A stretch of DNA of 32,032 nt from a virus, in the IMG/VR virus record IMGVR_UViG_3300032229_000578, positions 1 through 32,032 of that record; one strand, given 5' to 3'. The notes beneath the pieces were generated by a model that made no database searches, had not been told where the DNA came from, and saw nothing but the letters and a program-made list of their open reading frames with translations. A program made the position numbers and the translations under genes. The stretch's first letter is position 1. Each line of letters starts with the position of its first letter. This document shows positions 690 through 11,784 of the stretch, one piece after another.

Positions 690-780
690 AGTCAGGTGGC
701 AATTGGGTGTCACAGCTGCTTCGGGGGCTGTATCACGCTCCCTGTAATGGGGAGTTCAGGTTCGAATCCTGTCCTGACTA
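690..780 (+). tRNA. tRNA-like element A, anticodon unclear
   Basis: The acceptor AGTCAGG/CCTGACT is perfect, the D-arm is TGGCA..TGTCA, and the T-arm is canonical with TTCGAAT. Between them lie two hairpins, ACAGC-(10 nt)-GCTGT and CTCCC-TGTAATG-GGGAG. The first is where the anticodon arm should be but its loop is 8-10 nt, not 7; the second could be a long variable arm. No reliable anticodon can be read. It may be a class II tRNA with an enlarged loop or a member of the tRNA-like family described in the findings. Confidence 0.5.
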
Positions 781-784
781 CAAA

Positions 785-848
785 ATGGTTACTGTTAGGA
801 ACAGAAATGGGTCTCACAATAGAGATATAAATCAGTAACAGTAACCAT
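785..848 (+). repeat. 13-bp inverted repeat between tRNA-like elements
   Basis: ATGGTTACTGTTA (785-797) is perfectly complementary to TAACAGTAACCAT (836-848), closing a 38-nt loop. It fills the spacer between elements A and B. There is no T run after it, so it is not a simple terminator. It may be a processed small RNA or a folding spacer. Confidence 0.6.
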
Positions 849-855
849 TAATAAT

Positions 856-926
856 AGTCAGGTGGCGTATTAGGAAACGCTCCATGTGTAGGTGGTAGAT
901 AATAGGTTCGAATCCTATCCTGACTG
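856..926 (+). tRNA. tRNA-like element B, degenerate anticodon arm
   Basis: 71 nt, close to normal tRNA length. The acceptor AGTCAGG/CCTGACT, D-arm GCGTATTAGGAAACGC and T-arm ATAGG-TTCGAAT-CCTAT pair well. The middle can form only CCA-(8 nt)-TGG, so a normal 5-bp anticodon stem with 7-nt loop is absent. It looks like a tRNA whose upper half is preserved and decoding half is not. Confidence 0.5.
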
Positions 927-1095
927 CAAAAGAAGCCCTCTGCCAAGCGCTTGGTAAGGAACGAAGATAGAGATTACAGATATGGGTTGAAATAAAAAAT
1001 ACCTTCGGGTACATTCATATTGACGTGGAGGCTCTCCGAATCGTGTGTCGGCAAAGTTTGTGTGTTCTTGGGATAATTAAAAAACACACATTTTT
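927..1095 (+). other. structured spacer
   Basis: No gene is seen. The stretch contains CCAAGCGCTTGG, a stable UUCG tetraloop hairpin TACC-TTCG-GGTA (1000-1011) and an 8-bp stem TGTGTGTT/AACACACA (1059-1066 with 1083-1090) just before element C. Confidence 0.5.
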
Positions 1096-1222
1096 AGTCA
1101 GGTTGCGTATTGGAATACGTAGGTTGGTAACAAGTGTCGGTAATCAAGACGGGTATATAAGCAATAGAAGCCCTGAGAGAAAAACACACCTCATCGTACA
1201 GGTTCGAATCCTGTCCTGACTA
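1096..1222 (+). ncRNA. tRNA-like element C with long middle insert
   Basis: 127 nt. The 5' end has acceptor AGTCAGG and a D-arm-like CGTATTGGAATACG; the 3' end has T-arm ACAGG-TTCGAAT-CCTGT, CCTGACT and discriminator A. About 78 nt separate the D-arm from the T-stem, against about 23 in a normal class I tRNA. I cannot fold this into an anticodon arm plus variable arm. It is too short for a self-splicing group I intron, and no group I core motifs are visible. Confidence 0.55.
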
Positions 1223-1384
1223 CGAAAGTTAGATACAAGTCTTTGGTAGTTCTTAGATGAGTATACTATACGTTGGTGGTTTAATAACATTCCACACGGT
1301 GATTAAAAAAAAATGTTATTACAGGTTTAATAAAGGAGTAAGGGAAAGAGTAACTAACGAGTACCTTACAACCTACTGTAAAAT
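1223..1384 (+). other. structured spacer
   Basis: No gene is seen. AATAACATT (1283-1291) pairs with AATGTTATT (1312-1320), and GTAAGG pairs with CCTTAC further on. It lies between elements C and D. Confidence 0.4.
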
Positions 1385-1459
1385 AGTCAGGTAGTTACAA
1401 GTGGGAGAACTGTTGGCGTAAAACCCGATGAGATACAGGTTCGAGTCCTGTCCTGACTT
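1385..1459 (+). tRNA. tRNA-like element D, 8-nt anticodon loop
   Basis: 75 nt. Acceptor AGTCAGG/CCTGACT, D-arm GTT..AAC with a GTGGGAG loop, T-arm ACAGG-TTCGAGT-CCTGT. The middle folds as GTTGG-CGTAAAAC-CCGAT, a 5-bp stem (with G-T pairs) and an 8-nt loop. Eight-nt anticodon loops are known in frameshift-suppressor tRNAs, but the usual T33 is not in place, so decoding is doubtful. The discriminator is T1459. Confidence 0.5.
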
Positions 1460-1493
1460 CTAAAATTGTGAGTGGAATATATAGAACTCTCGT

Positions 1494-1524
1494 TATGTGA
1501 TGTAAGGTTCTTATCGGTCACATA
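1494..1524 (+). repeat. inverted repeat in spacer between D and E
   Basis: TATGTGA (1494-1500) pairs with TCACATA (1518-1524), forming a 7-bp hairpin with a 17-nt loop. The rest of the spacer 1460-1575 shows nothing else I can name. Confidence 0.4.
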
Positions 1525-1575
1525 TACTAAAGGTAAGTACGGTACAATCCCGACCAAGGAAATAATAGGGGTGTT

Positions 1576-1719
1576 AGTCAGGTGACGAAATTGGTAAACG
1601 TGCTGTAAGTACCTCAAAAGAAACGTATAGAATGAGGGAACTCGGTGGACAAACTACAAACGTGAGTAGTTGGAGATTATTTCTTTAAATCCTTACAGGT
1701 TCGAATCCTGTCCTGACTA
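1576..1719 (+). ncRNA. tRNA-like element E with long middle insert
   Basis: 144 nt. The 5' part (AGTCAGG, then a D-arm like that of tRNA-Leu) and the 3' part (T-arm, CCTGACT, A1719) are intact. The middle has two clear hairpins, CCTCA..TGAGG and AACTAC-AAACGTGA-GTAGTT, the second inside CTC..GAG. None presents a 7-nt anticodon loop. This is the clearest case of a structured domain held between tRNA halves. Confidence 0.55.
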
Positions 1720-1741
1720 CAAAAAAATATTTTACAAAGTG

Positions 1742-1773
1742 TTTGGTAGAATGAAATAATCTACATATCTTTG
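1742..1773 (+). promoter_or_regulatory. Bacteroidota-type promoter
   Basis: TTTG (1742-1745), a 20-bp spacer, then TATCTTTG (1766-1773), an exact match to the -33 TTTG / -7 TAnnTTTG consensus. It is followed by a boxA-like motif (1794-1802) and the element chain 1816-2559. It would restart transcription in the middle of the array. Confidence 0.75.
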
Positions 1774-1791
1774 TGGAACAAATAAGGAAAT

Positions 1792-1804
1792 AAGTTCTTT
1801 GAAA
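1792..1804 (+). promoter_or_regulatory. boxA-like antitermination motif
   Basis: AAGTTCTTTGAAA lies 18 bp after the -7 element and 12 bp before the first stem of the next structured RNA. It shares the nine-base core GTTCTTTGA with the motif at 454-462. Confidence 0.5.
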
Positions 1805-1815
1805 TTATAAAGATA

Positions 1816-1954
1816 TTGATAGTGGTTTTCCCCACCCAACGGATGTCGACAATCCAGGATGGAATCGGAATTCATCACCCTTTCTGCCGAGGCCTCGTAA
1901 AACTACGATTAAGCAGTTAAGATTGGAGCGAGATGGGTACTCCTTCACTATCAA
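1816..1954 (+). ncRNA. structured RNA T1 (TTGATAG family)
   Basis: TTGATAGTG (1816-1824) pairs perfectly with CACTATCAA (1946-1954) and closes a 120-nt interior. A second copy of the same closing stem with a different interior is at 2334-2406. Both are followed at once by CAACATT and an element starting GTGTTGT, so T and E elements form a composite unit. Function unknown. Confidence 0.5.
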
Positions 1955-1961
1955 CAACATT

Positions 1962-2064
1962 GTGTTGTTCCCTTGAGAAAGGAATGGTAACATGACCCAG
2001 TAATAAAACACTCAATGAATGGGTATCAGACGTGAGGCGGCACAGAGGAGTTCTCAACCTCAAA
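1962..2064 (+). ncRNA. structured RNA E1 (GTGTTGT family)
   Basis: Begins GTGTTGTTCCCTTGAGAAAG, where CCTT-GAGA-AAGG is a GNRA-capped hairpin. GTGTTGT pairs with GCGGCAC (2037-2043) through G-T pairs, and a hairpin GAGG-AGTTCTCAA-CCTC follows. The interior contains ACCCA..TGGGT. Three further copies (2226, 2414, 3640) share the 5' block exactly but have different interiors. Confidence 0.6.
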
Positions 2065-2067
2065 AAT

Positions 2068-2221
2068 AGTCAGATGGCGGAATGGTAGACGCTAAAGAAT
2101 GTATGGGATAAGTTGAATCTACGGTAGCGGACATATTAACAAATGGTGGAAATAAAGTCTATCCACACGTAAACCCAGCAGAAAAAGATTCACATTACAG
2201 GTTCAATTCCTGTTCTGACTT
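2068..2221 (+). ncRNA. tRNA-like element F with long middle insert
   Basis: 154 nt, the longest of the family. The acceptor is AGTCAGA/TCTGACT, a compensated change from AGTCAGG/CCTGACT, which argues that the pairing is under selection. The D-arm GCGGAATGGTAGACGC is of Leu type and the T-arm reads TTCAATT. The middle can nest TGAATC with GATTCA and a GTGGA..TCCAC hairpin. No anticodon arm is evident. Confidence 0.55.
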
Positions 2222-2225
2222 CAAA

Positions 2226-2329
2226 GTGTTGTTCCCTTGAGAAAGGAATGAAATAGTCGGGTGGGTATATAAACTTTACAATGGGGTATATAAACATTTG
2301 CACAACACAGAGGAGTTCTCAACCTCAAA
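2226..2329 (+). ncRNA. structured RNA E2 (GTGTTGT family)
   Basis: Same 5' block as E1 with perfect GTGTTGT/ACAACAC closure (2226-2232 with 2302-2308), then hairpin GAGG-AGTTCTCAA-CCTC. The interior is only about 50 nt and has the repeat GGGTATATAAAC twice. It starts four bases after element F. Confidence 0.6.
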
Positions 2330-2333
2330 AATA

Positions 2334-2406
2334 TTGATAGATGGGTCTAATCAGGCGAAAATGATTAGAATAAAAATGTAGTGACGCTCGTTCCCTAATC
2401 TATCAA
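2334..2406 (+). ncRNA. structured RNA T2 (TTGATAG family)
   Basis: TTGATAGAT pairs with ATCTATCAA at its ends; inside, CTAATCA-GGCGAAAA-TGATTAG is a 7-bp hairpin. The ninth pair differs from T1 (AT/AT against TG/CA) with pairing kept. It is followed by CAACATT and element E3. Confidence 0.5.
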
Positions 2407-2413
2407 CAACATT

Positions 2414-2559
2414 GTGTTGTTCCCTTGAGAAAGGAATAGAAACGCAGGGCAAAGTATCCGAAAGGAGAAGAGTTTAGGTGAAATACCTAAAGGGCAGTAC
2501 TACGAAGCCATAACCTTACCCTGGTAATAAGTACCAACACAGAGGAACTCAACCTCAAA
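2414..2559 (+). ncRNA. structured RNA E3 (GTGTTGT family)
   Basis: Same 5' block as E1; GTGTTG pairs with CAACAC (2535-2540). The 3' hairpin is GAGG-AACTCAA-CCTC, two nt shorter than in E1. The interior, about 95 nt, includes TTTAGGT-GAAAT-ACCTAAA and TCC-GAAA-GGA. tRNA-Phe starts four bases after its end. Confidence 0.6.
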
Positions 2560-2562
2560 TTT

Positions 2563-2635
2563 GGTGTGATAGCTCAGTAGGTAGAGCAGTAGACTGAAAA
2601 TCTACGTGTCGCAGGTTCGATTCCTGCTCATACCA
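2563..2635 (+). tRNA. tRNA-Phe(GAA)
   Basis: Acceptor GGTGTGA/TCATACC (one G-T), D-arm GCTCAGTAGGTAGAGC, anticodon arm GTAGA-CTGAAAA-TCTAC with anticodon GAA, T-arm GCAGG-TTCGATT-CCTGC, discriminator A. Confidence 0.95.
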
Positions 2636-2640
2636 CATAT

Positions 2641-2758
2641 GGTGTTAAAGGGTTGAACGACGGTAATATGGTCTCACACACTGAATACTAGTTAGGTGAG
2701 AAAAGTGAGAGGATATATCAAGTAGTTCAACGAGATGGGTTCGATTCCCTCAACACCA
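2641..2758 (+). ncRNA. tRNA-like element X, tmRNA-like layout
   Basis: 118 nt. Acceptor GGTGTTA/CAACACC (one mismatch) and a short T-arm GGG-TTCGATT-CCC. Unlike the AGTCAGG family it has no normal D-arm; instead GTTGAAC (2652-2658) pairs with GTTCAAC (2725-2731) just inside the T-arm, a layout like acceptor, helix P2 and T-arm in tmRNA. The interior has TCTCAC..GTGAGA. No tag-like frame ending AA-stop is evident. Confidence 0.45.
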
Positions 2759-2782
2759 CGGAGTCCTGAAATAACAGGAAAC

Positions 2783-2828
2783 CCCCACTCCCGTATGGCA
2801 GCCAGTCCATTAACCTGGTCAAGTGGGG
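2783..2828 (+). repeat. inverted repeat before element H
   Basis: CCCCACT (2783-2789) pairs with AGTGGGG (2822-2828), preceded by a small hairpin CCTG-AAATAA-CAGG. It fills the spacer between elements X and H. Confidence 0.4.
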
Positions 2829-2833
2829 ATGAT

Positions 2834-2966
2834 AGTCAAGTGGACGTAATGCGGGATGGTACCCAAGTCCGAAAAACACCACGGTCCATAACCATTTGGA
2901 CGCGAGAAGTTATAAGGTTGTCTAATCCGTCTTGAACGGTATTCGGTTCGAGTCCGACCTTGACTA
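2834..2966 (+). ncRNA. tRNA-like element H with long middle insert
   Basis: 133 nt. The acceptor AGTCAAG/CTTGACT is a second compensated variant of the family stem. The T-arm is TCGG-TTCGAGT-CCGA and the discriminator A2966. GGAC..GTCC occurs where the D-arm should be. The long middle has no recognisable anticodon arm. Confidence 0.5.
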
Positions 2967-3068
2967 CAAAAAATAAAATGGACTATGCAGGTGCGTATCC
3001 TGAAAAGACGGGGAGAACGATGTACACAACCAACCGTAATCCAATAACATAGATAGTTTTGTTTTTAT

Positions 3069-3166
3069 AGTCAGGGGGCGTGTTGGATAACGCACCAAGT
3101 CCGAGACACCCTTGGTGGAGTAGGCATCCAAATGGGGGATAACAGGTTCGATTCCTGTCCTGACTA
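3069..3166 (+). tRNA. tRNA-like element I, 11-nt loop
   Basis: 98 nt. Acceptor AGTCAGG/CCTGACT, D-arm GCGTGTTGGATAACGC, T-arm ACAGG-TTCGATT-CCTGT. The anticodon-position hairpin CCAAG-TCCGAGACACC-CTTGG has an 11-nt loop, and a hairpin ATCC..GGAT could be a variable arm. It is the most tRNA-like of the enlarged members, but no anticodon can be assigned. Confidence 0.5.
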
Positions 3167-3193
3167 CAAAAAATAAAAAAAACAACAAGAACA

Positions 3194-3355
3194 ATGAGTT
3201 TATACATAAGTAAATTTGAATCAAAGTTAGATAAAGCATTATCTAAAGAAACAAGAGAGAGTCTAACAGAGTGGATTGGATTTAAAAGAAAGAAAACTTT
3301 AAACAAAAAGAACAATGAAACAAACAGCAGTAAGATTTTTAAAAGAACAAATTGA
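3194..3355 (+). CDS. small protein, unknown
   Basis: A 53-residue frame starts MSLYISKFES and is rich in Lys and Glu, with no membrane segment or recognised motif. Support comes from its leader: AAGAACAATG here matches AAGAACAATG at the next gene (3308-3317), so the two share a translation-start context. Its last 41 bases overlap that gene in another frame, which is unusual. It is embedded in the RNA array. The alternative is that only the downstream gene is translated and this is its 5' leader. Confidence 0.45.
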   Translation: MSLYISKFESKLDKALSKETRESLTEWIGFKRKKTLNKKNNETNSSKIFKRTN

Positions 3356-3575
3356 AAATAACATTACCCTAAAAAACTCACACGATGTTATTGTAATTCT
3401 ACTGACTAAGTCAACATTGAATGATTATTTTGATAAAGCTAAAGAGATGGAAGAGCAACAGAAAAAAGCTGCACAAGTTGAAATTCTAAGTTTACTTCAA
3501 GCAGAACTTGATGGAAATAAAACCGAAGAAAACAATTTGTGGTATAAAGTTAATAAGTTAAAACAAACCATTTAA
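3315..3575 (+). CDS. small phage protein, unknown function
   Basis: 86 residues, beginning MKQTAVRFLK. A predicted helical segment containing KAKEMEEQQKKAAQVEI resembles small conserved proteins common in phages of Bacteroidota, which have an AV-W/F-L..Q start and a KAKEMEKQQ core; no function is known to me. It is soluble and probably helical. It is the only well-supported protein gene inside the RNA array, following the small frame at 3194 and preceding the tRNA-like fragment at 3596. No Shine-Dalgarno is present, as expected for a Bacteroidota host; an A-rich leader precedes the ATG. Confidence 0.8.
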   Translation: MKQTAVRFLKEQIENNITLKNSHDVIVILLTKSTLNDYFDKAKEMEEQQKKAAQVEILSLLQAELDGNKTEENNLWYKVNKLKQTI

Positions 3576-3595
3576 ACAAGAATCATAAAACAAAT

Positions 3596-3639
3596 AGTCA
3601 GGTGGCGGAATGGTAGACGATAAATTAAGAGGTAAAATT
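3596..3639 (+). pseudogene. 5' half of a Leu-type tRNA-like element (J)
   Basis: AGTCAGGTGGCGGAATGGTA and the following GACG match the first 25 bases of element K. No T-arm or 3' acceptor strand follows; the E4 element starts directly at 3640. It is either a disrupted copy or a 5' fragment kept together with E4. Confidence 0.5.
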
Positions 3640-3766
3640 GTGTTGTTCCCTTGAGAAAGGAAGACTGAACAAACGCTAAGTATGAAACTGATTACACTAA
3701 AAGTAATGGCCTAGCAATAGGTGGGTAAAACAGTCCAGACAACACTGAGGGGTTCTCTCTCTCAAA
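3640..3766 (+). ncRNA. structured RNA E4 (GTGTTGT family)
   Basis: Identical 5' block to E1-E3; GTGTTGT pairs perfectly with ACAACAC (3739-3745). The 3' hairpin is changed to TGAG..CTCA with loop sequence GTTCTC kept. The interior of about 90 nt is unrelated to the other copies. It sits between a 5' tRNA half (J) and a complete element (K). Confidence 0.6.
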
Positions 3767-3767
3767 C

Positions 3768-3869
3768 AGTCAGGTGGCGGAATGGTAGACGCAGGTGGTA
3801 AGTAAGTTAGGCCCTAAAGGATAACGAAGTCCACAACTTACCGAACAGGTTCGATTCCTGTCTTGACTA
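3768..3869 (+). tRNA. tRNA-like element K, enlarged
   Basis: 102 nt. Acceptor AGTCAGG/CTTGACT (one G-T), Leu-type D-arm GCGGAATGGTAGACGC, T-arm ACAGG-TTCGATT-CCTGT. A 7-bp stem GGTAAGT/ACTTACC closes the middle, which contains GTTA..TAAC. If it is a tRNA-Leu derivative, the anticodon arm is extended by about 20 nt and the anticodon is not readable. Confidence 0.5.
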
Positions 3870-4029
3870 CACGTTTCGGTTCATCACCGAATAGTATGTC
3901 CAATACGATGAGAAACAGGGTGATACCTTGTATGGAACTTCTGATAGGGAAACGCTCTATCTGGTTTGACTAACCACGGGGAATATCAAAGAGATGTAAA
4001 GAACAACGTACTCTCATAGTCATTTTCTT
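3870..4029 (+). other. structured spacer
   Basis: No gene is seen. Small hairpins such as CGGT-TCAT-CACCG and GATAG..CTATC are present. It separates elements K and L. Confidence 0.35.
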
Positions 4030-4122
4030 AGTCAGGTTTGGTACAAGGTCGGTTCGAGTCCGATGGAAGGTCATGGATGTCGGGTAGCTCCCTGTAGAGA
4101 GGTTCGATTCCTCTCCTGACTA
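4030..4122 (+). ncRNA. tRNA-like element L with two T-arm-like hairpins
   Basis: 93 nt. Acceptor AGTCAGG/CCTGACT and 3' T-arm AGAGG-TTCGATT-CCTCT are intact, but the D-arm is missing. In its place is GTCGG-TTCGAGT-CCGAT, itself a perfect T-arm. Possible origins are recombination between two tRNA-like copies or a designed two-T-arm RNA. No anticodon arm is evident. Confidence 0.5.
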
Positions 4123-4171: not shown

Positions 4172-4267
4172 TTGATTATGGTGTAATGGCGCACAGCAGA
4201 ACGGAGTACTTTTAGGAATTTTAGGAAAGGGGACGCAGGATTAAGGTTCGAATCCTTTTTAGTCAAC
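4172..4267 (+). tRNA. tRNA-like element M, Gln/Glu-type D-arm
   Basis: Acceptor TTGATTA/TAGTCAA (one T-G), D-arm GTGTAATGGCGCAC like that of the tRNA-Gln at 5665, and T-arm AAGG-TTCGAAT-CCTT. The middle is about 45 nt and has no clean 5-bp, 7-nt-loop anticodon arm. It could be a degenerate tRNA-Gln or another insert-bearing tRNA-like RNA. Confidence 0.4.
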
Positions 4268-6358: not shown

Positions 6359-7486
6359 TTATAATAGACCTTTAATTCTTTTAATATTTTCTTCGATTTT
6401 TTTATCAGATTCTTTATCAGTTTTTTTATCGAATGATTTTTTGACGTTTCGATATCCTTTAATTAACATTTGAGCATAAGCTCCTTTATTTGATAAATCA
6501 CTATTGTCGGTTTCTTTATTTTTCTCTTTTTCTTTTTCAACTTCAGTTTTTTCTGTATCAAAAACAATTGTTTCTTTTCTTTTACTATGTGTGTATAAAG
6601 TTACGCTAACATTTGAATTGGTAGTTCCTAACACAGTACCGACTCCAACTCTATCTTTTACTTTTTCCGATGGAGAGGTTATTCCGCAGTATTCTAAAAA
6701 TCCGTCTTCAAATTCTATAATGATTTGATTAACACATGAACTGTTTGAGATTACATCAACCACATTACCTGAAACAGGACTTTTAATTTTTGTGTTTGAA
6801 TTTCTTGGTATTATTACTCTACCGTTTTTAATTTTTGCATTACTACCAAAAGAACCTGATTTAAAAGATTCTTGAATTCCAGCCGCTTTGAGTAGTTCAC
6901 CTCCAACACTTTTAACAAAATCTCTTGAACTTGAACCTTTAACGTCACTTGTAGTTCCACTAGTTTCGGTGTCTGTTGTGTTAGTTGTATTAGTTGTACC
7001 TGTACTTATCGATGGTTGTTGTATTTTATCACCAGGGTAACCAACGTGAACATGGTTATCATGGTCTTTAACTCCAAATGTTAACACCGATTTATTATTA
7101 CCACTTTCTCGGTTTTTTACATAACCCATTGAAATTAATGCGTTAACTAATTTGTCGGCATCTCCCCTATTAGATGCACTAACGGCTTTGTTGTTAATCA
7201 TTGCAATATCAACAGCATTTCCTGATTCATGTCTTGTACCTTTGTCATGTCCTGATACTGCGGTTGTAACATCAACCATTAACCCCGCAGATTGAGCGGC
7301 TTTTTGAATATCTTGTAATAATGTTGTATTAATGTTATCGGTTGACGGTGTACTATTACCGACAACTCTATCTTTAAAATTGATGTTTGGGTAAATGTCA
7401 ACCACCTCAAATACCAATCTTTTATTCTCGTTTATAGTATCATAACTTGATAATATATCTTCGATTAATTTTTTTTGTCTACTCAT
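6359..7486 (-). CDS. cell-wall peptidase, M15-like plus degenerate M23-like domain
   Basis: 375 residues. An M15 (VanY/L-Ala-D-Glu peptidase type) domain is shown by TRHESGNAVDIA near residues 84-95 (the H-x(6)-D zinc motif) and NHVHVG near 145-150 (third zinc His and catalytic neighbour). A second region near 225-310 (SPVSGNVVDV .. VGVGTVLGTT) looks like a LytM/M23 beta-fold but lacks the zinc histidines, so it may only bind. The C-terminus is Lys/Glu-rich. No signal peptide is seen. It would cut peptidoglycan cross-links, either as endolysin or virion-associated enzyme. It has RTATTTATA three bases before the ATG, the same late-type motif as the virion genes, and stands alone between two terminators. 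Confidence 0.78.
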   Translation of the reverse strand: MSRQKKLIEDILSSYDTINENKRLVFEVVDIYPNINFKDRVVGNSTPSTDNINTTLLQDIQKAAQSAGLMVDVTTAVSGHDKGTRHESGNAVDIAMINNKAVSASNRGDADKLVNALISMGYVKNRESGNNKSVLTFGVKDHDNHVHVGYPGDKIQQPSISTGTTNTTNTTDTETSGTTSDVKGSSSRDFVKSVGGELLKAAGIQESFKSGSFGSNAKIKNGRVIIPRNSNTKIKSPVSGNVVDVISNSSCVNQIIIEFEDGFLEYCGITSPSEKVKDRVGVGTVLGTTNSNVSVTLYTHSKRKETIVFDTEKTEVEKEKEKNKETDNSDLSNKGAYAQMLIKGYRNVKKSFDKKTDKESDKKIEENIKRIKGLL

Positions 7487-7844: not shown

Positions 7845-8302
7845 TTTCCTATTTTATCTTTTTCTGATATTGTTAATTCATGGTTACCAACATAACTCTT
7901 AATTACTTCTGATACTTTTGGGTTATCAGACCAAACAATACTGTGTTCACTTTGGGGGTTGTATTCACCCTCAACCATATAAACTACAATAGTATTTGGT
8001 TCTAATGTTAAAAACCCATTAGCCTTTGTGTTTGGGATAAAAACCGCTCCTGTGTCATTCACTTCACAAAAATCTACTTCCCCTGTTTCCAAATCAACCA
8101 TAACATCAACAATGGAACCTTTAACCACTTTAACGTATTTTTTCTGAGGTGGATTTGTTTGATAATGTAATCCCCTAAATGTGTAGATGTTATCGTTCAC
8201 ACTAATTGAACACTGGTCCCATTTTTCATTAAGAACATTCAATGGTATTGGAGTATAAGAACCCCTACCATCATTGTATGTTAAATGACTTACTTCTATC
8301 AT
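7841..8302 (-). CDS. RmlC-like dTDP-sugar 3,5-epimerase
   Basis: 153 residues, shorter than typical RmlC (about 180). Cupin fold motifs: FRGLHYQ near residue 44-50, with the His that acts as base in RmlC, then QKKYVKVVKGSIVDVMVDL, ANGFLTLEP and VVYMVEGEYNP. It should epimerise a dTDP-4-keto-6-deoxyhexose at C3 and C5, in the cytoplasm. No other rhamnose-pathway gene is in the window, so the phage may redirect a host precursor. It overlaps its neighbours by four bases on both sides. A related role as sugar isomerase or a sugar-binding cupin cannot be excluded. Confidence 0.8.
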   Translation of the reverse strand: MIEVSHLTYNDGRGSYTPIPLNVLNEKWDQCSISVNDNIYTFRGLHYQTNPPQKKYVKVVKGSIVDVMVDLETGEVDFCEVNDTGAVFIPNTKANGFLTLEPNTIVVYMVEGEYNPQSEHSIVWSDNPKVSEVIKSYVGNHELTISEKDKIGK

Positions 8303-8871
8303 GTTAAAAATTTAAGTACTTTATCTTTTACTCCTGATTGTTTAATTCCTTCATTACCTAATGGAGTTAATACAAAATTATCCATACCCCAATTTTTCCA
8401 ATCTTCACCATTTTTACCCATATCTAAGTCGTCGATAGATACCCAATGAGTGACTTCAGGATGGTCATGTAAAAATTGTGTAATCTCAATAACACGAGTC
8501 ATTTCCAAATCCCAACGAGGAGACCAAATCCAAACTTGATTATTGTACCAAGTACACTGACCTAAATTGGTGGTTACTGCAATAGGTTTTTTTATGATAC
8601 CTTGTTGTTCGTAGTATTCACCAAGTTCTTCAAGTGTTGCATGTAGTTTCCAATCAGAAGATACTACGATTTCAGCACCAGTTTCTTCTAAAATTTCGTT
8701 AAGTACTTTAACCGTCTTCTTATTAAAGTTGTCGAATCGGTACTCTAATGGGATTTCATGGTTAGCCATAGATAATTTACGACCTCCCCATTCCTTTTGT
8801 TTCTTGTAACGACCGCCCCACTCTGAGGACAAACAGATTACTCCGTCGTGGTCTAAAAATATTATTTTCAT
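8299..8871 (-). CDS. HAD-family phosphatase
   Basis: 190 residues. Motif I FLDHDGVI (residues 4-11) provides the two catalytic Asp residues; motif II is VVSSDW (Ser), and SIDDLD near residue 145 fits motif IV. This set matches HAD proteins related to polynucleotide phosphatases and RNA-repair-associated HADs. The reaction would be phosphate removal from a nucleotide, sugar or nucleic-acid end; the substrate cannot be told. It follows a second HAD gene with TAATG (one-base overlap), and the RmlC-like gene follows with ATGA. Confidence 0.75.
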   Translation of the reverse strand: MKIIFLDHDGVICLSSEWGGRYKKQKEWGGRKLSMANHEIPLEYRFDNFNKKTVKVLNEILEETGAEIVVSSDWKLHATLEELGEYYEQQGIIKKPIAVTTNLGQCTWYNNQVWIWSPRWDLEMTRVIEITQFLHDHPEVTHWVSIDDLDMGKNGEDWKNWGMDNFVLTPLGNEGIKQSGVKDKVLKFLT

Positions 8872-9506
8872 TATCTTATTGTCTGTGTTAATCTTTCGTA
8901 ATTACTTTTGTTTTCAAATTGTCTGTCAATTCTATATAAGTGATTTGGGTTTAATCCAAACCACGGGTCTGTGTGATGAAACTTCATAAATTGTTCTGGT
9001 AACATATCAGAATCATCATCTAAGATTGCATAGTCCTCAACCTCAGGGTGTTTGTCTAACCAATCTTTAATTTCGTCACCCCTTAGAGTTCTTCGGTCTC
9101 CTGTAATTCCAACGTAAGTACCTTCTTTAAACCCAAGTTTAACTAGAGCGTCTTCCCATTTTTCAGGTGTAGAGACATAACCTTTAACTCCAAAATTATG
9201 TTTCCATGTTGATGAAATACAAATTTTAGTATCTGTTTCATTACACCATTCAGATAACCATTCCCATTTTTGAGGACAAGTCTCTTCTTGTAATCTTTTG
9301 AATTGGTAATCAAATGTATAGTGTGAATCAGGTGTTTTATAGTCAGCCAAAGAAACTCCCTTTGGTTGAATACCGAATAACTTTCTTACTATTCGTTTTA
9401 ATGCATACCACCAAGTGATGGGTTTTCTCCATCGTTTCTTATATCTATCCTTATAAAAAACTGTGGAGTTCATAACCCCATCAATATCTAAAAAAATCAC
9501 TTTCAT
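8871..9506 (-). CDS. HAD-family phosphatase
   Basis: 211 residues. Motif I FLDIDGVM (residues 5-12), CISSTWKH (motif II Ser/Thr) near 96-103, RTLRGDEIKDWL, then AILDDDSDM near 162-170 as motif IV. The RG-EI-WL segment before the DDD is typical of HAD domains seen with RNA-repair proteins. The downstream paralogue at 8299-8871 shares its order of motifs, so the pair may have arisen by duplication. It is the promoter-proximal gene of the operon. The promoter lies at 9511-9542 with only four bases between the -7 element and the ATG. Confidence 0.78.
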   Translation of the reverse strand: MKVIFLDIDGVMNSTVFYKDRYKKRWRKPITWWYALKRIVRKLFGIQPKGVSLADYKTPDSHYTFDYQFKRLQEETCPQKWEWLSEWCNETDTKICISSTWKHNFGVKGYVSTPEKWEDALVKLGFKEGTYVGITGDRRTLRGDEIKDWLDKHPEVEDYAILDDDSDMLPEQFMKFHHTDPWFGLNPNHLYRIDRQFENKSNYERLTQTIR

Positions 9507-11384: not shown

Positions 11385-11784
11385 TGGTGGAGGTAGAGGG
11401 ATTCGAACCCTCGTCTTGCCCATCTCGACAATAAATGACTACACGCTTAGGACAACATTTAAGCTAATGTTCCGAAATTTCACAATTCCCTTATTTTTAA
11501 AGTGGTTCGGTTTACTGAGAACTAATCCTCCACTTGTTTCTTTTAAGATAGAAACCACACCCCTTACAAAGACTTCTGTTCCTGGGTTTATGTCTTCCCG
11601 ACCCGATGGTTCTTCCTAATCTGATTAGGCTGCAACCGTAGCATCTTCACGGACTAATCCGATAGCTGCCATTTTGTTTAAAACGTTGCCGTTTAATTGT
11701 TGACTCCATAGATTAAAGTGATAGGAACCCTCTCACTGCGTGCCACGTATCCCCAACTATGTCAATCGATACCAGTGTACCCCC
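11385..11784 (-). ncRNA. ssrA: tmRNA (SsrA)
   Basis: 400 nt with encoded CCA (11387-11385). The acceptor GGGGGTA (5' end at 11784) pairs with TACCTCC and has a G-U at the third pair, the alanine identity element. The 5' end GGGGGTACACTGGTATCGAT resembles the conserved tmRNA start, and the 3' T-arm is AGGG-TTCGAAT-CCCT. The tag frame ends LVREDATVAA before TAA at 11627-11625, and that stop lies in the hairpin CCTAATC/GATTAGG typical of tmRNA. Read from GGC at 11690 the tag is 21 residues, long for a bacterial tag. It rescues stalled ribosomes and marks products for Clp-type proteases; no smpB is in the window, so host SmpB would be used. Confidence 0.93.

What the first reader, a model, noticed from the sequence alone, without database searches (positions are those of the whole stretch)
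690..4122. Family of tRNA-like RNAs with constant ends and unrelated middles
Elements A, B, C, D, E, F, H, I, K and L (690, 856, 1096, 1385, 1576, 2068, 2834, 3069, 3768, 4030) share acceptor AGTCAGG/CCTGACT or compensated variants, a T-arm and mostly a D-arm, but carry middles of 20 to 110 nt that do not resemble one another. The upper half, which RNase P, RNase Z and EF-Tu recognise, is kept; the decoding half is replaced. Ideas: tRNA-like shells that carry and stabilise small RNA cargo; punctuation for RNA processing; decoys for host anticodon nucleases or tRNA-targeting defences; or tRNAs with an unknown type of short intron.
Basis: partly seen in the sequence, partly recalled or inferred. 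Interest (0 to 1): 0.92.

Follow-up and report, generated by a model that had tools for sequence, protein, structure and literature searches.

The report
Phage tRNA shells carrying swappable RNAs
Viruses of bacteria encode hundreds of small RNAs that keep the upper half of a transfer RNA but replace its code-reading half with unrelated RNA inserts that move between viruses as single cassettes; engineers invented the same design to make stable RNAs, and no natural family like it was found in the databases and papers searched.

Summary
Across IMG/VR I collected 575 distinct members in 353 loci. They share acceptor AGTCAGG/CCTGACT or paired variants, a T-arm, usually a D-arm, and the tertiary marks of a tRNA elbow. 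The anticodon arm is gone: 8% of shells versus 91% of real tRNAs, about 4% by chance. Inserts fall into 374 clusters, with no saturation. In the families tested, shell and insert helices both covary. The same insert appears in unrelated genomic places, and related phages swap inserts with junctions inside the shell. Shells keep U(-1) and C74 and lie on the same strand as every neighbouring tRNA or shell (472/472).

Best reading: a natural tRNA chassis, cut out of a long transcript by host RNase P and RNase Z, that stabilises a trans-acting RNA. Excision and insert function are inferred, not shown. Closest precedents: T4 RNA C (unknown function), tmRNA, the engineered tRNA scaffold. Introns and anticodon decoys are not supported.

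The parts
690..779 (+). Shell A: acceptor AGTCAGG/CCTGACT, short D-arm, anticodon-like and variable-arm-like hairpins, T-arm
   Evidence: 46.1 bits; most tRNA-like member
856..925 (+). Shell B: shortest cargo (about 21 nt)
   Evidence: 57.1 bits; ARAGORN 'tRNA-???'
1096..1221 (+). Shell C: cargo about 77 nt; same cargo in L211
1385..1458 (+). Shell D
   Evidence: 44.4 bits
1576..1718 (+). Shell E: cargo about 93 nt; same cargo in L095 and L142, homology ends at the shell
2068..2220 (+). Shell F: AGTCAGA/TCTGACT (compensated), cargo about 104 nt
   Evidence: 62.9 bits
2834..2965 (+). Shell H: AGTCAAG/CTTGACT (compensated), no standard D-arm; same cargo in L109, L211, L309
3069..3165 (+). Shell I: same cargo in L109, L027, L162; with L027 and L162 homology ends at the shell
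3768..3868 (+). Shell K: AGTCAGG/CTTGACT, cargo about 52 nt; its T-arm is a recombination junction with L109
   Evidence: (72.6 bits)
4030..4121 (+). Shell L: second T-arm-like hairpin in place of the D-arm; same cargo in seven other loci
3596..3638 (+). Element J: 5' half of a shell (acceptor 5' strand and D-arm) running into a two-hairpin element; no T-arm of its own
   Evidence: sequence; (27.2 bits, spurious 3' end)
2640..2759 (+). Element G: shell-like with another acceptor (GGTGTT/AACACC) and a weak T-arm
   Evidence: read directly
4173..4265 (+). Element M: shell-like with another acceptor (TGATTAT/TTAGTCA)
   Evidence: (23.6 bits at 4174-4264)
1962..2061 (+). Two-hairpin (KL) element 1, immediately upstream of shell F
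2226..2326 (+). KL element 2, immediately downstream of shell F
2414..2555 (+). KL element 3, immediately upstream of tRNA-Phe
3640..3763 (+). KL element 4, between half-shell J and shell K
   Evidence: same cargo in L136
425..470 (+). Putative promoter -7 (TATCTTTG) and boxA-like GTTCTTTGACATGTTGG, upstream of the array's tRNA-Val
1742..1802 (+). Second putative -33/-7 promoter and boxA-like GTTCTTTGA inside the array

Best explanation
Each element is a single RNA gene with two modules. The constant module is a tRNA acceptor stem, T-arm and usually D-arm that folds as a tRNA elbow. The variable module, in place of the anticodon arm and variable loop, is an independent RNA with its own fold. 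The array is probably transcribed as one long stable-RNA transcript together with the true tRNAs. Host RNase P would cut at U(-1)/nt 1, RNase Z or exonucleases would trim the 3' end, and CCA would be added, so that the shell excises the insert and protects it. The inserts then act in trans, most likely on host or competitor targets; anti-defence or host take-over is my guess. The identical ends also serve as homology arms by which phages exchange inserts. Shown here: anatomy, covariation of shell and (in the families tested) insert, loss of the decoding half, conserved processing determinants, strand concordance with tRNAs, cassette mobility. Inferred: transcription, processing, stability, trans action. 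Not known: the targets.
For: Tests not biased to pairing: 168/175 and 141/144 versus 6 shuffled. Cargo family A1: 14 pairs changed on both sides, 0/500 shuffles, in both shell and cargo helices. A3: 13 such pairs among three sequences. The acceptor is re-paired as AGTGCAG/CTGCACT in a deposited complete genome, MW202828. Elbow marks as in real tRNAs: T8 274/286, A14 246/286, GG in D-loop 97%, 15-48 Levitt-compatible 77% versus 82%. U(-1) in 238/286 and C74 as in canonical tRNAs. Strand agreement with neighbouring tRNAs and shells 472/472; of 23 isolated shells, 22 lie between genes on the same strand, a few with gaps of 15-20 nt. Cassette behaviour: 181/194 same-cargo pairs have both flanks unrelated; insert swap at shell ends between the window and L109. 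374 cargo clusters, unsaturated. BoxA-like leader 26-31 nt before tRNA arrays. The engineered tRNA scaffold (acceptor, T and D arms kept, insert in the anticodon arm) is processed precisely and stable in E. coli (PMC3753655).
Against: No transcript, end-mapping or phenotype data exist here. Inserts are only modestly more stable than shuffles (mean z -0.67, 16% below -2), so many may be partly unstructured. Covariation in cargo was shown for only a few families. The shared AGTCAGG letters could mean recognition by a specific protein, which this model does not need. No antisense targets were found in the 32 kb window.
Confidence: 0.7

Rival explanations
1. Decoys or resistant substitutes for tRNA-targeting defences: the tRNA-like top binds or saturates host nucleases or toxins that recognise tRNA, and the inserts vary to escape recognition.
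For: Phage tRNAs are known to counter tRNA-cleaving defences such as Septu and PARIS (PMC13096335). High diversity fits an arms race.
Against: The anticodon arm, target of many such nucleases, is absent in over 90%. Conserved covarying cargo folds shared between unrelated phages are not needed for a decoy of the upper half.
Confidence: 0.12
2. Pure processing punctuation: the shell only places RNase P and RNase Z cuts so that neighbouring RNAs or mRNAs are released; the insert is filler.
For: Two-hairpin elements sit 4-5 nt from tRNA or shell ends. Isolated shells lie between genes of one operon.
Against: Filler would not keep covarying pairs or move between phages as one cargo. An ordinary tRNA would serve equally well.
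Confidence: 0.1
3. Aminoacylated tRNA-like RNAs (tmRNA-like or non-ribosomal aminoacyl donors): the Leu-type D-arm and A73 allow charging without an anticodon.
For: The D-arm matches tRNA-Leu; A73 in 250/286; leucyl-tRNA synthetase of E. coli is known not to need the anticodon (own knowledge).
Against: G or T at position 73 in 35/286. T-stem and acceptor letters change within one cargo family. No tag reading frame was looked for.
Confidence: 0.06
4. tRNA genes with an unknown class of short intron, or decaying tRNA pseudogenes.
For: Tools label a few as tRNAs; ARAGORN gives 'tRNA-???' for two.
Against: No anticodon arm remains when the insert is removed. No boundary motif. Hundreds of unrelated inserts in one and the same shell. 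Pseudogenes would not keep the pairing and the elbow marks.
Confidence: 0.02

Closest known systems
Phage T4 RNA C (species 1 RNA, rnaC)
   Same: Small stable RNA in the tRNA cluster of a T4-type phage; T-arm (CCGGG/CCCGG) plus an acceptor-like helix whose third pair covaries (CGATTCG/CGTTTCG to CGGTTCG/CGTTCCG); non-tRNA middle; function unknown (PMC3014915)
   Different: No D-arm; acceptor has a tandem U-U; one RNA, not a family with exchangeable inserts; not found by the shell model in the T4 genome
tmRNA (RF00023)
   Same: Acceptor and T-arm of a tRNA with the anticodon arm replaced by a large insert
   Different: tmRNA lacks a proper D-stem, has G3-U70 for alanine, a coding tag and pseudoknots (own knowledge); shells have a D-arm and U3-A70, and no tag or pseudoknots were identified. 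A normal phage tmRNA is present separately at 11385-11784
Engineered tRNA scaffold for recombinant RNA
   Same: Acceptor, T and D arms kept, RNA of choice inserted in place of the anticodon loop to obtain precise processing and stability (PMC3753655)
   Different: Man-made; here it is natural and has diversified into hundreds of inserts
TMERs of murine gammaherpesvirus 68
   Same: Viral tRNA-like element used to process a small-RNA cargo by tRNase Z (PMC4838037)
   Different: Cargo (pre-miRNA hairpins) lies downstream of the tRNA-like element, not inside it; animal virus
GOLLD and ROOL RNAs
   Same: Large structured phage RNAs near tRNA islands, function unknown (PMC12286853); GOLLD occurs near shells in L037 and L105
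   Different: Large nanocage RNAs without a tRNA-like shell

Membership tests
tRNA (RF00005) | Acceptor stem and T-arm | tested here: met
tRNA (RF00005) | Elbow tertiary positions (U8, A14, G18G19, 15-48) | tested here: met
tRNA (RF00005) | Anticodon stem-loop at positions 27-43 | tested here: not met
   14/181 versus 7.1 expected and 433/475 in canonical tRNAs
T4 RNA C | Sequence and structure homology (shell model finds it) | tested here: not met
   model R1 finds only tRNA-Ser and tRNA-Leu in T4; RNA C lacks a D-arm
tmRNA | Match to the tmRNA family | tested here: not met
   Rfam finds tmRNA only at 11385-11784 in the window, not in shells
tmRNA | G3-U70 alanine identity | tested here: not met
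   acceptor AGTCAGG/CCTGACT has U3-A70
tRNA with intron | Constant exon boundaries and an intact tRNA after removal of the insert | tested here: not met
   no boundary motif; no anticodon arm
Any described non-tRNA family in Rfam 15 | A shell matches it at E up to 1 | tested here: not met
   no shell of the window matched a non-tRNA family
Natural tRNA-scaffold (chassis and cargo) RNA | Discrete processed RNA with CCA end in infected cells | not testable with these tools
   needs RNA from infected cells

The most novel reading that the evidence does not exclude
A large, open class of phage RNA effectors: hundreds of different structured RNAs, each delivered in the same tRNA chassis, exchanged between phages as cassettes through their identical ends, and used against host functions or defences, an RNA counterpart of phage anti-defence protein islands.
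Probability: 0.4. Interest if true: 0.96.

Novelty: categorically new. Interest (0 to 1): 0.88.

Why it matters
If the RNAs are made, phages use a natural tRNA scaffold as a general expression device for hundreds of unrelated RNAs. That opens a large unexplored class of viral RNA effectors, gives a framework for asking what T4's orphan RNA C does, and may explain some undetermined tRNA calls in phage genomes. The chassis makes the question testable: inserts can be moved into laboratory tRNA-scaffold plasmids and screened one by one.

Tried and rejected
Introns: no boundary motif, no anticodon arm left. Anticodon decoys: rate near chance. Antisense to the phage's own 32 kb: longest matches as in shuffles. 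Known RNA families: no shell matches one other than tRNA at E up to 1. Host origin: the 5' pattern has only 9 hits in 84,980 GTDB species genomes; on reading them, five records (L119-L121, L124, L126) hold shells, all in metagenome-assembled contigs, and the other four lack the shell. A link between T4 RNA D and the KL element (similar hairpin) failed: the hairpin is not kept in JS10 or KNP5. Cis-regulation of a neighbouring gene: the commonest cargo has different neighbours in almost every locus. Common motif in inserts: only weak enrichments; TCTGCAAA came from a few probable tRNA-Cys genes. Distant blastn of the array against phage records found only part of one ordinary tRNA. Literature searches found no description of such a family, but the library lacks most subscription papers.
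Full report
WHAT WAS CHECKED. The window is a 32,032-base IMG/VR virus record. It carries large terminase and portal genes matching phage families. The closest cultured terminases include Flavobacterium phage immuto, a T4-like phage, at about 25% identity, and promoter-like sites of the -33 TTTG/-7 TANNTTTG kind are more frequent than in shuffles, so a Bacteroidota host is likely but not shown. Ordinary tRNAs are present. Among them lie the ten reported elements, all at the stated starts.

IT IS NOT CHANCE. I wrote a scanner for T-arm, acceptor and D-arm. It found about 500 hits in the fetched loci and 3 in the same loci reversed. Because that scanner selects for pairing, two tests without that selection were made. 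Anchored on the D-arm motif alone, 168 of 175 unique cases form at least six of seven acceptor pairs, with many compensated variants. Anchored on the 3' end alone, 141 of 144 have a pairing 5' strand within 230 nt, against 6 after shuffling; 119 are exactly AGTCAGG, the median length is 106 nt and only 12 are 78 nt or shorter. A covariance model from 53 shells finds all ten window elements. Real tRNAs also score, up to 48.5 bits, because they share the elbow, so scores alone do not separate A, D, H and L from tRNAs; the replaced or missing anticodon arm does (A is the least clear case).

HOW WIDESPREAD. A single D-arm pattern hits 100 IMG/VR stretches. Loci collected for another feature, the KL element, also contain them: AGTCAGG in 67 of 141 non-canonical shells there. 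In all, 575 distinct shells in 353 loci carry inserts in 374 clusters by blastn, 267 of them singletons, and the rarefaction curve is far from flat. Clusters are blastn groups, so distant relatives may be split, and 34 of the 575 have an anticodon-arm-like stem-loop and may include real tRNAs. One 123-kb contig has about a dozen shells. A complete 60,850-base genome in GenBank, MW202828, has exactly one model match.

THE DECODING HALF IS GONE, THE ELBOW IS KEPT. A five-base stem with a seven-base anticodon-type loop at the right place occurs in 433 of 475 canonical tRNAs, in 14 of 181 shells and in 7.1 of 181 shuffled shells; several of the 14 look like real tRNAs. The elbow is as in tRNAs: T8 in 274 of 286, A14 in 246, GG in the D-loop in 97%, and a Levitt-compatible pair 15-48 in 77% (82% in canonical).

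INSERTS ARE CONSERVED RNAS. In the commonest cargo family (16 sequences, alignment A1), 97.7% of cells pair and 14 of 27 pairs show changes on both sides, with 0 of 500 shuffles reaching this. Seven of the 14 are in the cargo helices and seven in the acceptor and T-stem. The member in MW202828 has a re-paired acceptor, AGTGCAG/CTGCACT. A second family of only three sequences shows 13 such pairs, including a replaced T-stem. The window's E insert has a relative in L095 at lower identity. Averaged over 203 inserts the folding energy is only slightly better than shuffles (z -0.67), so not every insert need be highly structured.

CASSETTES. Of 194 same-cargo pairs from different loci, 181 have no related sequence on either side; 40 of 43 cargo clusters include such a pair. 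The homology shared by the window and other phages often ends at the shell: E with L142 and L095, I with L162 and L027, L with L140 and L167. The window and its close relative L109 are mosaics at about 95% identity. Between I and L, L109 carries another insert; the upstream spacer matches the window's B-C spacer up to the start of the shell, and the downstream flank joins near K's T-arm. The simplest reading is recombination through the identical shell ends.

PROCESSING SIGNALS. U at -1 (238 of 286; canonical 346 of 503), C at 74 and A/T-rich leaders match the canonical tRNAs. All 472 comparisons with tRNAs or shells within 400 nt agree in strand. Isolated shells sit between co-directional genes (22 of 23; background same-strand rate of adjacent genes 0.88, so this alone is weak), some with gaps of 15-20 nt that leave little room for a promoter. 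A boxA-like GTTCTTTGACATRTTGG occurs 27 times in the loci, and in 16 of these it lies 26-31 nt before a tRNA or shell. The window has GTTCTTTGA before its array (454), again inside it (1794) and just before its tmRNA (11791, minus strand), with 6 matches against 0.65 expected. By analogy with rRNA leaders this suggests an antiterminated stable-RNA transcript; it is an inference.

MECHANISM. The design equals the engineered tRNA scaffold, in which acceptor, T and D arms are kept and RNA is inserted in place of the anticodon loop, giving precise processing and stability in E. coli (PMC3753655). I therefore favour a natural chassis for trans-acting RNA (0.7). What the inserts do is unknown. Their number, turnover and horizontal movement resemble anti-defence genes, which is why I name anti-defence or host take-over as the likeliest role, at lower confidence (about 0.4).

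COMPARISON. T4 RNA C, a stable RNA of unknown role (PMC3014915), has a T-arm and an acceptor-like helix with one covarying pair, but no D-arm, and the shell model does not find it. tmRNA, TMERs and GOLLD/ROOL differ as listed. No paper found describes the family; the library is incomplete, so absence of a paper is weak evidence. I call it categorically new because I know of no natural RNA family that pairs one constant tRNA-like shell with hundreds of unrelated inserts; a stricter reader may prefer 'new variant' of tRNA-like phage RNAs.

LIMITS. All evidence is from DNA. Loci come mostly from metagenomes, and hosts are unproven. Covariation counts on scanner-selected sequences are biased towards pairing; searches are the fair tests.

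Noticed in passing
window 1962-2061, 2226-2326, 2414-2555, 3640-3763; L128-L244: A second, unrelated RNA family with constant ends and variable middles: helix GTGTTG/CAACAC, a 5' hairpin TTCC-CTTGAGAAA-GGAA and a 3' hairpin GAGGA-CTTCTCA-TCCTC whose loops are complementary (TGAGAA/TTCTCA). No Rfam match.
   Followed up: partly
window about 1806-1956 and 2332-2408: Two stretches bounded by TTGATAG...CTATCAA look like a third constant-end family; a 17-mer from the first (TTAAGATTGGAGCGAGA) recurs in 14 loci.
   Followed up: no
L037:3644-4051 and L105:1259-1665: GOLLD RNA lies on the same loci as shells in two phages.
   Followed up: no
L253:7033-7110 and 7400-7477 (Tenacibaculum phage pT24): Two 78-nt genes annotated tRNA-Undet have a long hairpin in place of the anticodon loop; a cultured phage with a simple relative of the design.
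   Followed up: partly
L245:1409-1547 (T4 rnaC), L246, L247: T4 RNA C has a tRNA-like T-arm and an acceptor-like helix with a covarying third pair; in phage PG7 the homologue overlaps a gene annotated tRNA-Met.
   Followed up: partly
window 11385-11784 (-): Phage-encoded tmRNA with a boxA-like motif just upstream.
   Followed up: no
window 8299-9506 (-): Two adjacent genes with the HAD_SAK_2 domain (HAD domain of RNA-repair proteins) near the tRNA array.
   Followed up: no
window 454 and other loci: GTTCTTTGACATRTTGG, like an rRNA-leader boxA, stands 26-31 nt before tRNAs or shells in 16 of 27 occurrences.
   Followed up: partly
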